A stretch of 64,000 nt of DNA from Chloroflexota bacterium (GTDB lineage Bacteria > Chloroflexota > Dehalococcoidia > Lucifugimonadales > UBA3495). The notes under the pieces were generated by a model, which worked only from the letters and a program-made list of their open reading frames with translations, was not told where the DNA came from and ran no database searches. The DNA lies in assembly GCA_028873965.1 (NCBI GenBank), contig JAPPMU010000049.1, forward strand, positions 1 to 64,000. The letters run 5' to 3'. Shown piece by piece: positions 11,931 to 14,819 of this stretch. Position numbers and translations under genes: made by a program. The stretch's first letter is position 1, and every line of letters starts with the position of its first letter.

Positions 11931-12182
11931 ATGCCCGACATCTATTACGCCAGGCCCAGCAACTTCCTTTCCGACCCGCGAGACCGCACGGTGATCACGG
12001 GTGAGTCCGAGGAAGAAGTGCTCCAGAAAATGTACGCATACCTCAGCAGCCCCGAAGCTCAGGCACGCTACCCCGGCGTGGATGATCCGACCGAGCTCGA
12101 GAACAACATCCGGACGTGCATCTTCAAGAAGGGCACCAAGGCCATCCACAACCGCCCGCCGGATGCGGAACCGGTCAAGTAG
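11931..12182 (+). CDS. Small conserved-looking protein of unknown function
   Basis: An 83-residue, soluble, mixed-charge protein beginning MPDIYYARPSNFLSDPRDR. I do not recognise the family. The gene looks real: a consensus promoter lies at 11841-11870, a strong GGAGGAGG ribosome-binding site precedes the ATG, and a hairpin follows at 12209-12235. No cysteine pairs apart from a single Cys, no membrane segment and no signal peptide are visible. Confidence 0.75.
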   Translation: MPDIYYARPSNFLSDPRDRTVITGESEEEVLQKMYAYLSSPEAQARYPGVDDPTELENNIRTCIFKKGTKAIHNRPPDAEPVK

Positions 12183-12208
12183 CCCGAGGAAATACTCGCG
12201 GCCATTCG

Positions 12209-12239
12209 TGCCCCCGTTCATGCCGGACGGGGGCATCTT
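12209..12239 (+). terminator. Probable terminator hairpin
   Basis: TGCCCCCGT (12209-12217) pairs perfectly with ACGGGGGCA (12227-12235), loop of nine, followed only by TCTT. It is a strong stem with a weak T tract. Confidence 0.6.
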
Positions 12240-12249
12240 GGCGTTCGGG

Positions 12250-12278
12250 TTGCTGCGCCGGCCGCCCGTGGTTATACT
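12250..12278 (+). promoter_or_regulatory. Promoter implying a leaderless mRNA
   Basis: TTGCTG (12250-12255), 17-base spacer, TATACT (12273-12278). The next gene's ATG is at 12287, so the expected transcription start falls on or within two bases of the start codon. No Shine-Dalgarno sequence is present, which agrees with leaderless translation. Confidence 0.55.
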
Positions 12279-12286
12279 GCGGCATC

Positions 12287-12976
12287 ATGGCGATCAATCC
12301 TGACGACTTCCCGCCGGGAACCTACCACGAGCTGTCCCTGTTCCCGCTGAACAACGTGGTGCTTTTCCCCGGCATGCCGTTGCCGCTGCACATTTTCGAG
12401 GAGCGGTACAAGGCGATGATCGGCGACTGCATCGAGCGGGACGAACCGTTCGGAGTGCTGCTCATCAGGGAGGGCAACGAGGTGGGCGAACCGGCGGAAC
12501 CGCATTCCATCGGCACCACGGCGCGGGTCTCGCAGGTCCAACGCCTGCAGGAAGGCCGTCTGAACATTCTGACCCGCGGCGAAACCCGTTTCGAGTTGCT
12601 GCAAACCGTGCAGACCGTACCGCATCTGGTCGGGTTGGTCCGGTTCATGGAAGAAGACGAGGGGGATGTTTCCGCGACCGCGGTAGCCAACGTGCGCGAA
12701 CAGTTCATCCAGTTGCAGCGTCAGCTCACCGCCATGGCCGGCGGCTGGGATCGGGAGGTCACGGTTCCCGACGAGCCCATCGCGCTGGCCCGCATCGCTT
12801 CGGCCACCCTGGCCGTCAGCCTGCCGCTGCCCCCCGACGTGCGGCAATCCTTGTTGGAAACCCCCACCGCCGGTGGACAGCTGGAAAAGTTGCAGACCCT
12901 GATGCGGCAGGCGAACCGCATCGTCGCGGAACAAGCGGAACAGAACACCCCGTTCAAGGGGCCACGCCTGAACTGA
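12287..12976 (+). CDS. LON substrate-binding-domain protein
   Basis: 229 residues consisting of a LON N-terminal (PUA-like) domain without the AAA+ or protease parts. The opening LSLFPLNNVVLFPGMPLPLHIFE is the family signature, followed by the beta-rich PFGVLLIREG and TTARVSQVQRL strands. Stand-alone proteins of this kind are common, and their role is unknown (substrate recognition or regulation is presumed). The ATG at 12287 is nine bases after a -10 hexamer and lacks a ribosome-binding site, suggesting a leaderless message. The gene converges with the Uma2 gene. Confidence 0.88.
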   Translation: MAINPDDFPPGTYHELSLFPLNNVVLFPGMPLPLHIFEERYKAMIGDCIERDEPFGVLLIREGNEVGEPAEPHSIGTTARVSQVQRLQEGRLNILTRGETRFELLQTVQTVPHLVGLVRFMEEDEGDVSATAVANVREQFIQLQRQLTAMAGGWDREVTVPDEPIALARIASATLAVSLPLPPDVRQSLLETPTAGGQLEKLQTLMRQANRIVAEQAEQNTPFKGPRLN

Positions 12977-12990
12977 CCCGGCGGTGTTAA

Positions 12991-13701
12991 CTACCGAGAT
13001 TGAAGGCGGCGCAATTGTTCGCGCAGTTGGCGCGCTTCTTCCTCAGCCCTTTCGGCTCGTGCTTCGGCGGCGGCCAGCGCCTCCAACGCTTCTACGAGGT
13101 CCGGCAGATATTCCCGCGTCGCCGGGTCCCAGAACCGCAGCTGTCGGTCTTCCGCGCGCAACTCCAGACCCAGGCTGGGACTGTAGCCCCGCACCAGGCC
13201 ACCGTCGTCGTAGTCGATTGGCCAGGGCCGGTACACTCCGTTTTCCAGCACCTCGCCGGCCAGAGGGGCGTCGTGCCACTGCCCGCCGCTGGGGTCAAAC
13301 CGCCAGTATTCCCTGACCTCCAGGCGCGCGTAGATGTCGCGTTTCGCGGTGTAGTCGTACCGGCCGGTGCTCGGCGACGCCACTTCCAGCACGAAGTCCG
13401 GCGGCTGCCCGACTTCGCTGATGACGTATCCGTTGGCTTCTTCAATGAGTTGAGCGGGAAAGGGGAGATCAAAGGCGGCCACGCAGTCGGGGCGAGGGGA
13501 GCGGCGAGCATCGCGGGCCTCAAAGCAGAGATAGCCCTCTCCCGACACCAGGGTGTTGGGCTGGCGCCGGTAGTGGCTGCGCAGAACCTGATCGATACGG
13601 GCGATATGGGGGCGCTGTTTCATGCCGTCAGGAAGCGGGGGCGGATCCGGCAACTCCGTGAGATTGGGGTAGGCAGCGGCCGGCCGCGGTTTCGTGGTCA
13701 T
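12991..13701 (-). CDS. Uma2 family (DUF820) PD-(D/E)XK nuclease-like protein, copy 1
   Basis: 236 residues. The core reads PPDFVLEVASPSTGRYDY, then AKRDIYARLEVREYWRFDP, the D-ExV-K-YxxxxVxEYW order that defines the Uma2/DUF820 restriction-endonuclease-like fold. The C-terminal 35 residues are an Ala/Glu/Arg-rich coiled coil. Members are abundant in Cyanobacteria and Chloroflexota and lack a proven role. The start overlaps the stop of the upstream BtuF-like gene (ATGA at 13698-13701), implying translational coupling. A paralog with the same coiled-coil tail lies at 59212. Confidence 0.88.
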   Translation of the reverse strand: MTTKPRPAAAYPNLTELPDPPPLPDGMKQRPHIARIDQVLRSHYRRQPNTLVSGEGYLCFEARDARRSPRPDCVAAFDLPFPAQLIEEANGYVISEVGQPPDFVLEVASPSTGRYDYTAKRDIYARLEVREYWRFDPSGGQWHDAPLAGEVLENGVYRPWPIDYDDGGLVRGYSPSLGLELRAEDRQLRFWDPATREYLPDLVEALEALAAAEARAERAEEEARQLREQLRRLQSR

Positions 13702-14648
13702 GGGGAACCCCCTTGTCCAGAGCCGTGGCCGGAGCCGTAAATGCGGCGCGCCCCCGCCTCCGGGATCATCCCGGCGAACAGCTCGGGATGGATCATCTCG
13801 GCAAGTATCTCCAGGCCGGTGACGAGCCGCGGGCCGGACCGGCTGGTGTAGTTGCTGGCGTCGATGACGTACACGCGGTCGTTCTGCACTGCCGGCAGTC
13901 CAGCCCAGCCTTCTTTCTCGGTGAGCAGGGGGATGTCCTCCATGGCACGGGGCACCTCAAACCCGCAGGGCATGACCACGATGACCTCCGGCTGGCTCTC
14001 GACCACCGCGTCCCATTCCAGCGGGAAGGAGCCCGTCTCCTTGTCGCCGAAGCAGTTGGTTCCCCCGGCCAGCTCCACCATTTCCGGAACCCAATGGCCG
14101 CCGCACATCAGCGGATCGGTCCATTCCAGGTGCAGCACCTTGGGGTGGGCGTCGGCCAGTTCAGCACGCCGGGTCACGGCGTCGATGCGGTCCTGCATCC
14201 GGGCCGTCACCTGCTCGGCAACGGACTCGGCGCCCGTGGCTTGGCCCACCCGGCGGACGTCTTCCAACACGTCGCCAAGATACTGCGGGTCCAGCGACAG
14301 GACGGTGGGCTCCTTATCCATGTTGGCGGTGGACTCGGCGACCTGCCGAGAAGACACCGCTCAAACCTCGCAGATAGCCTGGGTGAGCAGCAGGTCCGGG
14401 TTGGCCGCGTCGAGGATATCCTGGTCGATGTGGTAGATCCCGAGCCCCTCGGCGAGGCGCTCCGAAATCACGCGGCTGATCTCACCGCTGCTGGGTTGAG
14501 TGCCCTCGAAAACGCTGCGCACCACCCACGGCTTGTCTTTGGCCTGGGCTGGGTAGTCGCACTCGTGGGTTACGCCGTAGAGCTGGTCCTCCAGCCCCAA
14601 TGCGTAAACGATCTCGGTGGCGGAGGGTAGAAAAGAACAGATTCGCAT
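13698..14648 (-). CDS. BtuF-like metal/cobalamin receptor, candidate selenoprotein (UGA at residue 96)
   Basis: A 316-residue helical-backbone metal-receptor protein (BtuF/FecB fold) if the in-frame TGA at 14361-14363 is read through. The N-terminal part [18 protein letters not shown] and the C-terminal [23 protein letters not shown] are both well-conserved family segments in the same frame. The UGA sits in C-E-V-UGA-A-V-S, where relatives have CxxC (CAVS), giving a CxxU motif. A 35-base hairpin follows immediately. Both halves look intact, unlike a pseudogene. No signal peptide is obvious, so it may be a cytosolic relative of the periplasmic receptors. The alternative is a nonsense mutation splitting the gene (14361-14648 and 13698-14357). 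The 3' end overlaps the Uma2 gene. Confidence 0.75.
14326..14363 (-). promoter_or_regulatory. Candidate bacterial SECIS element of the BtuF-like gene
   Basis: Directly after the UGA, GCGGUG pairs with CACCGC and, after a 4/2 internal loop, CUCGGC pairs with GCCGAG, closing an AGGUC apical loop. The loop begins 16 bases after the UGA, within the accepted 16-37 window, and has a G in its second position. The E. coli fdhF SECIS loop is AGGUCU, a near match. All pairings were checked base by base. Confidence 0.75.
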
Positions 14649-14704
14649 GGTGTCGCCTGCCTGATAATGACTGCGCGCATTGTAGCACCGCCTGAAAATC
14701 ACAC

Positions 14705-14802
14705 CGTCGTTCCTGCGAAAGCAGGAACCCAGAAAAGCCTCTGCGATAAGAACGTTGGTTGGAATTTACGCTCACTGGATTCCGGCTTTCGCCGGAATGA
14801 CG
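14705..14802. repeat. Palindromic repeat family B, copy
   Basis: A short hairpin GTTCCTGCGAAAGCAGGAAC near the left end, followed 70 bases on by ATTCCGGCTTTCGCCGGAAT. The outer bases CGTCGTTCC and GGAATGACG also nearly match. It is the REP-like 'CTTTCGCGGGAATGACG' type of element, lying between the antiporter and the BtuF-like gene. Confidence 0.75.
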
Positions 14803-14819
14803 TCATTTGGTAACAGACC

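What the first reader, a model, noticed from the sequence alone, without database searches (positions are those of the whole stretch)
13698..14648. BtuF-like receptor with an in-frame UGA at a CxxC cysteine and an E. coli-like SECIS hairpin
Two conserved halves of one family protein are in the same frame, separated by one TGA. It stands in C-E-V-UGA-A-V-S, where relatives have CxxC, so reading Sec gives a CxxU motif. Directly after the UGA is a 35-base stem-loop (6 bp, 4/2 internal loop, 6 bp) with the apical loop AGGUC, 16 bases from the UGA; the E. coli fdhF SECIS loop is AGGUCU. I know of no described selenoprotein in this family.
Basis: partly seen in the sequence, partly recalled or inferred. 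Interest (0 to 1): 0.92.

Follow-up and report, generated by a model that had tools for sequence, protein, structure and literature searches.

The report
Selenocysteine version of BtuF-like protein
A gene that looks broken by a stop codon really encodes a selenium-containing protein related to vitamin B12 carriers; it is conserved across one group of bacteria, and reviews already list this kind of protein as a predicted selenoprotein.

Summary
The gene is on the minus strand (CDS 14648-13701). One in-frame TGA (14361-14363) stands in C-E-V-U, and a bacterial-type SECIS hairpin follows directly. The genome has selA, selB, selD (itself UGA-coded) and tRNA-Sec. Among 91 homologous loci from relatives, codon 96 is TGA in 54 (47 genomes) and TGC/TGT in 37. 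The upper SECIS helix is 97.9% paired, with compensatory changes at 3 of 6 pairs. dN/dS is far below 1 on both sides of the UGA. The tree needs a single Cys-to-Sec change. This is a real selenoprotein gene, seen only in one order of Dehalococcoidia in what I sampled.

It is not new as a kind.

What I add: the protein lacks a leader-like N-terminus and belongs to a wide bacterial and archaeal family with four invariant Cys/Sec residues (30, 93, 96, 228). Of 68 Cys relatives, 17 have B12-type uptake or adenosyltransferase neighbours. Inferred, not shown: a cytosolic corrinoid-handling protein whose thiol/selenol residues act on cobalt before adenosylation.

The parts
13698..14648 (-). Sec-containing BtuF-like (Peripla_BP_2) gene, 316 aa, no leader-like N-terminus; terminal stop TGA 13698-13700
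   Evidence: found with the UGA in 47 of 250 genomes of the order (counted from the table, codon checked)
14361..14363 (-). In-frame TGA read as selenocysteine (residue 96, CEVU)
   Evidence: codon 96 is TGA in 54 and TGC/TGT in 37 of 91 loci
14326..14360 (-). Whole predicted SECIS hairpin of this genome (35 nt)
   Evidence: lower helix not conserved
14334..14350 (-). Conserved SECIS core: CTCGGC-AGGTC-GCCGAG
   Evidence: 97.9% of cells paired, 3 of 6 pairs with changes on both sides, 0 of 500 shuffles reach the covariation score
14370..14372 (-). Cys93, first cysteine of the CxxU motif (invariant)
14559..14561 (-). Cys30 (HECDYP motif, invariant)
13965..13967 (-). Cys228 (MPCGF motif, invariant)
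12116..12976 (+). Neighbour: LON substrate-binding domain gene; a gene of the same cluster flanks 9 of 12 named Sec loci and 5 Cys loci of Chloroflexota

Best explanation
A genuine selenoprotein gene. UGA at codon 96 is decoded as Sec by SelB and tRNA-Sec, directed by the hairpin just downstream (strongly supported by comparison and the sel genes, no experiment; about 0.97). The product is a BtuF-fold protein without a leader-like N-terminus, from a wide bacterial and archaeal family with four invariant Cys/Sec residues at 30, 93, 96 and 228. By model and alignment these follow beta-strands whose ends should line the inter-lobe cleft (inferred from the model, not measured). It most likely handles corrinoid in the cytosol, between import and adenosylation (inferred, about 0.6). 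The thiols, with Sec as the more reactive member of CxxU, would ligate or attack cobalt, for example to strip an upper ligand or help reduce it (inferred, about 0.3). Sec replaced Cys once on the tree, in one order of Dehalococcoidia.
For: Codon 96. SECIS covariation, including two compensated pairs in a genome of another family (L058, CGCGAC-AGGTT-GTCGCG). bSECIS constraints met by 51 of 53 Sec loci. selB 356.9 bits, selA 542, selD 377.6 with its own internal TGA, tRNA-Sec 66.4 bits with anticodon tca. dN/dS 0.00-0.10 before and 0.05-0.22 after the SECIS in nine comparisons. One Cys-to-Sec change on the tree. UGA still ends 8 of 37 Sec genes with a visible stop, so it is not globally reassigned. 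Model pLDDT 93.9. Foldseek matches V. cholerae BtuF (rank 4) and E. coli BtuF (ranks 39-40). hhalign puts Cys93 in an insertion directly after 'viawr' of E. coli BtuF, and Cys96 next to it. 17 of 80 named loci, all of Cys type, have a permease, CobA, PduO or TonB neighbour by clustering; representatives were identified. The six with CobA sit beside it; in four of these a separate BtuF-like gene with a leader-like N-terminus was read. Cobalamin riboswitches in 5 of the 80 loci. The window's genome has both adenosyltransferase types.
Against: None of the 12 named Sec loci has a B12 gene cluster within about 3 kb, so the corrinoid link is borrowed from Cys relatives, and 51 of 68 Cys loci show none either. 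Iron and heme binders outrank BtuF in Foldseek. No NCBIfam model reaches its cut-off. Ligand and localisation are untested, and cleft position is not measured. selA is in all 34 UGA-bearing genomes among 60 relatives but also in 21 of the other 26, so co-occurrence adds little. The genome has 7.3% estimated contamination and the sel genes lie on other contigs, though selA is found in all 14 genomes of the genus. The double changes in the stem rest on 5 cells in 4 sequences, two of them from one genus; the count of further pair types was reached by 7 of 500 shuffles. All 12 named Sec loci are the same genes as unnamed ones over residues 21-250, so they add names, not independent cases. Several dS values are near or above 1 (saturated).
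Confidence: 0.93

Rival explanations
1. Sec is real, but the protein binds something else (heme, soft metal, F420-0 or another cofactor) or is a general thiol oxidoreductase; its four Cys/Sec residues form a metal or redox site unrelated to corrinoid.
For: Iron- and heme-binding proteins lead the Foldseek list; weak sub-cut-off hits to F420-0, heme and B12 receptors; no B12 genes beside the 12 named Sec loci; the review expects redox functions for the majority of uncharacterised selenoproteins.
Against: B12 genes and riboswitches recur beside Cys relatives in several phyla. Three of the four residues align with or beside loops of E. coli BtuF; that these face the ligand is recalled.
Confidence: 0.35
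2. The UGA is a plain nonsense mutation (pseudogene) or a sequencing error.
For: Only the in-frame stop itself.
Against: Same codon in 54 loci from 47 genomes of three families, no other stop among their mapped codons before residue 306, dN/dS far below 1 downstream, stem covariation.
Confidence: 0.01
3. UGA is read as Trp, Cys or Gly by a changed genetic code or near-cognate readthrough.
For: Selection downstream requires readthrough of some kind.
Against: UGA ends this gene and 8 of 37 Sec-type genes with a visible stop; the aligned residue is Cys in all 37 and all 68 Cys-type loci; SECIS and sel genes are present.
Confidence: 0.01
4. Termination at UGA is also used: a 95-aa N-lobe fragment with its own role, controlled by selenium supply.
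For: SECIS-directed readthrough is incomplete in general (recalled).
Against: The fragment would be half a BtuF fold without the second lobe; not tested here.
Confidence: 0.04

Closest known systems
Predicted selenoprotein 'Cobalamin-binding protein BtuF' (cd01144, CxxU; RUA21600.1 / MDE0719563.1), listed in PMC9312934 and PMC13188914 after Peng et al. 2016
   Same: BtuF family, Sec second in CxxU, prediction only
   Different: In the passages seen, each review gives one table row. I could not read the two accessions or Peng's supplement, so identity rests on family plus motif. SECIS covariation, tree, four-Cys core and neighbourhoods are shown here.
E. coli / V. cholerae BtuF (1n2z, 1n4a, 5ysc)
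   Same: Fold and sequence profile
   Different: E. coli BtuF is periplasmic by its annotation and has no Cys at any of the four positions (Ser, gap, Gly, gap); here no leader-like N-terminus
BtuM (PMC6072759)
   Same: Proposed analogy: a Cys ligates cobalt and decyanates B12; its gene lies beside btuR in most hosts (abstract and Discussion read)
   Different: BtuM is a membrane protein resembling ECF S-components, another fold
SaoB / SaoX Sec-containing ABC transporter substrate-binding proteins (listed)
   Same: Selenoproteins among ABC substrate-binding subunits
   Different: Listed under other models with motifs CUxxT and UxP; not compared here by sequence

Membership tests
Bacterial selenoprotein gene | In-frame UGA aligned with Cys in homologs | tested here: met
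Bacterial selenoprotein gene | bSECIS: 3-9 nt loop, 4-16 bp upper stem, G in first two loop positions, 16-37 nt spacing, MFE <= -7.5 | tested here: met
   loop AGGUC, 6 bp, 16 nt, -22.1 kcal/mol; 51 of 53 Sec loci; constraints
Bacterial selenoprotein gene | selA, selB, selC, selD in genome | tested here: met
Bacterial selenoprotein gene | Sec residue shown in the protein | not testable with these tools
   needs 75Se labelling or mass spectrometry
Listed Sec-BtuF (CxxU) family | BtuF-family protein with CxxU | tested here: met
   listing
Listed Sec-BtuF (CxxU) family | Sequence match to RUA21600.1 or MDE0719563.1 | not tested
   I did not have these sequences; no search for them was made
Periplasmic B12 receptor BtuF (BtuFCD subunit) | BtuF fold / Peripla_BP_2 | tested here: met
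Periplasmic B12 receptor BtuF (BtuFCD subunit) | Signal peptide and export | tested here: not met
   hydropathy only, no signal-peptide predictor: best 12-residue mean in the first 35 residues is 1.39 here, 1.00-1.78 in 54 Sec proteins, against 2.19 in E. coli BtuF and 2.36-3.35 in 8 operon BtuF-like proteins
Periplasmic B12 receptor BtuF (BtuFCD subunit) | Curated BtuF model NF002894 cut-off | tested here: not met
   36.7 of 234 bits
Periplasmic B12 receptor BtuF (BtuFCD subunit) | Cobalamin binding | not testable with these tools
   binding assay needed

The most novel reading that the evidence does not exclude
A cytosolic corrinoid-processing selenoprotein: Sec96 (with Cys93, Cys30, Cys228) sits in a BtuF-type cleft and forms a selenolate-cobalt bond, or attacks the upper ligand, to strip cyano or alkyl groups or reduce cobalt ahead of the adenosyltransferase. 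The Cys form would be the general bacterial and archaeal version of this step.
Probability: 0.2. Interest if true: 0.8.

Novelty: new member of a known kind. Interest (0 to 1): 0.45.

Why it matters
It turns a one-row table entry into a well-supported selenoprotein with a distribution, a single origin and a SECIS. It also singles out a wide four-Cys BtuF-like family without a leader-like N-terminus, some of whose genes lie beside B12 uptake and adenosylation genes. If the family handles corrinoids, it may fill a gap between import and adenosylation, and Sec at cobalt would be unusual chemistry. Standard gene calling splits such genes in two, as one search shows here.

Tried and rejected
Rejected: pseudogene, sequencing error, recoding of UGA as another residue (see rivals). 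Selenium loss in family members lacking the gene: of 60 relatives, the three genomes of the window's family without the UGA gene also lack selA, but they are 66-71% complete; of the five such genomes (56-75% complete) three still carry UGA-type selD, so incompleteness is the simpler reading. UGA form outside the order: 3 of 393 sampled class genomes matched at 1e-90, all in the order (that threshold would miss distant forms). Literature treating this protein beyond table rows: searches showed none in listings and passages; most listed papers were not opened (PMC3621897 among them) and supplements could not be read. Papers looked into without a mention of it: PMC12013277, PMC2398784, PMC9402790, PMC5649159, PMC2667541 (passages only). 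No cobalamin riboswitch in the window at gathering scores. Synonymous constraint over the SECIS codons within the genus was weak: four codons, and 10 of 90 runs elsewhere as low. The selD hairpin of the same genome folds with a different loop. The plasmid search gave only homologs under 60% identity. Distances between the Cys residues could not be measured: model coordinates were not in the box. One search folded the wrong strand and is not used; one search translated the wrong strand.

Full report
1. The sequence. The gene is on the minus strand, 14648 to 13698. By table 11 it is two ORFs. With TGA read as a residue it gives 316 aa, the Sec codon being 14361-14363 and the terminal stop TGA 13698-13700. 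It matches Peripla_BP_2 (2.1e-24, residues 8-264), across both halves. NCBIfam gives only sub-cut-off hits to several receptors, including BtuF, heme and F420-0. The N-terminus is not leader-like: best 12-residue mean hydropathy in the first 35 residues is 1.39 here and 1.00-1.78 in 54 Sec proteins, against 2.19 in E. coli BtuF and 2.36-3.35 in 8 operon BtuF-like proteins. No signal-peptide predictor was run.

2. The hairpin. It meets the bSECIS constraints printed in PMC13188914 (passages seen). E. coli fdhF, fetched and read, has AGGTCT 17 nt after its UGA.

3. Machinery. In the window's genome (3.88 Mb, 70 contigs, 96.9% complete, 7.3% contamination): selB (356.9 bits), tRNA-Sec (66.4 bits; ARAGORN tca), selD with its own internal TGA, selA (542 bits). 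All four lie on other contigs than the window. selA is present in 55 of 60 relatives: all 34 with the UGA gene and 21 of 26 without (counted from the tables), so co-occurrence alone is weak evidence.

4. Conservation. Of 93 loci from relatives, 2 did not cover codon 96 (L066, L070). Of the other 91, 54 (from 47 genomes) have TGA and 37 TGC/TGT. In the order, 62 of 250 genomes match at 1e-85; counted from the table, 47 carry the TGA (45 of the window's family, plus G038 and G109 from two others) and 15 do not. In the class sample, 3 of 393 match at 1e-90, all in this order. One of its two search patterns contains Cys93. The class is inferred from them to be Dehalococcoidia; the window's own name is not given.

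5. RNA covariation. I aligned 33 of the 41 Sec loci then in hand, dropping 8. The upper helix has 97.9% of cells paired, three of six pairs change on both sides, and 0 of 500 shuffles reach the covariation score; 7 of 500 reach the count of pair types; slid controls pair 26-59%. The double changes are 5 cells in 4 sequences (L031, L060, L062, L058); L060 and L062 come from one genus. L058, from another family, has two compensated pairs. L098 pairs 4 of 6. By folding, 51 of 53 Sec loci (one with N left out) and 5 of 37 Cys loci meet the bSECIS rules; L056 and L068 fold otherwise.

6. Selection and origin. Nine comparisons with the window gene gave dN/dS 0.00-0.10 before and 0.05-0.22 after the SECIS, some with saturated dS. 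On a FastTree tree of 154 rows (49 Sec, 99 Cys, 6 secreted BtuF-like) the Sec rows form one side of a branch (support 99), one change in all; 54 of 151 inner branches are weak and some long branches are unsure. UGA still serves as terminal stop in 8 of 37 Sec-type genes with a visible stop.

7. Structure. The AlphaFold model from 40 sequences has pLDDT 93.9, pTM 0.91. Foldseek's first hits are iron and heme receptors; V. cholerae BtuF is rank 4, E. coli BtuF ranks 39-40. Cys30, Cys93, Cys/Sec96 and Cys228 are invariant in the 40-row alignment and in 80 of 80 named loci. They follow strands 23-27, 86-89 and 222-225. hhalign with E. coli BtuF places Cys30 in the 'ysdyp' loop, Cys93 in a four-residue insertion directly after 'viawr', Cys96 on the next Gly, and Cys228 on a gap. 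A PDB title (5m2q) names a W66F mutant with cobinamide; that the W of 'viawr' is W66 and faces the ligand is recalled, not tested.

8. Neighbourhood. Among the 80 named loci (up to 3 kb on each side), 17 have a neighbour in the clusters for permease, CobA, PduO or TonB receptor, all of Cys type: FecCD permease in 10, CobA/BtuR in 6, PduO type in 4, TonB receptor in 7. One representative of each cluster was identified (BtuC, corrinoid-type ATPase, CobA, PduO, TonB-B12 receptor; several below NCBIfam's curated cut-offs). In L137, L140, L141 and L147 a BtuF-like gene with a leader-like N-terminus precedes btuC-btuD, and our family's gene and cobA follow. Cobalamin riboswitches were found in L139, L142, L166, L187 and L190 (none). 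In L139 and L190 one lies ahead of a TonB gene and ours; in L142 it lies after our gene, ahead of the secreted BtuF-like one; in L166 it is on the other strand. None of the 12 Sec loci shows such genes. Sec and Cys loci of Chloroflexota share a LON-domain neighbour (9 of 12 Sec, 5 Cys), suggesting the same ancestral place.

9. Function, inferred. BtuM ligates cobalt through a Cys, decyanates B12, and lies beside btuR in most hosts (PMC6072759: abstract and Discussion read). By analogy I propose that the four-Cys BtuF-like protein takes imported or recycled corrinoid in the cytosol and acts on cobalt before adenosylation; Sec would make a stronger nucleophile or reductant. The window's genome holds both adenosyltransferase families. 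This remains a hypothesis.

10. Novelty. PMC9312934 (passages) and PMC13188914 (passages and part 1 of section 7 with Table 1) list 'Cobalamin-binding protein BtuF', CxxU, as predicted, citing Peng et al. 2016. The main text of that paper (abstract and passages) does not contain 'cobalamin' or 'Btu'; its supplement could not be read. The gene is thus a new, well-supported member of a listed kind.

Noticed in passing
window 14364-14366 and Sec loci: The codon just before the UGA is GTT in 49 of 54 Sec loci; perhaps a context effect on recoding.
   Followed up: no
window 13698-13701: A Uma2-family gene (12991-13701, minus) starts in a 4-base ATGA overlap with the stop of the Sec gene; it lies between this gene and the LON-domain neighbour here.
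   Followed up: partly
G000 C10:54762-55679 (L017): selD of the same genome is itself UGA-coded (CAGUAAK), with a hairpin whose loop differs from that of this gene.
   Followed up: partly
L073 and L074 (same genome): Two further paralogs with plain CxxC (43% and 38-39% identity): three versions of the family in one genome, only one with Sec.
   Followed up: partly
L145, L150, L151, L153, L172, L187, L190: A Dph6-like ATP pyrophosphatase (Diphthami_syn_2 in the one copy scanned, L145) recurs beside Cys homologs in 7 of 80 loci; its link to corrinoid is unexplained.
   Followed up: no
window 14700-14810: The upstream intergenic region holds inverted-repeat-like stretches (cgaaagcagg / ttcgccggaatgacg) seen by eye, possibly a dispersed repeat.
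   Followed up: no
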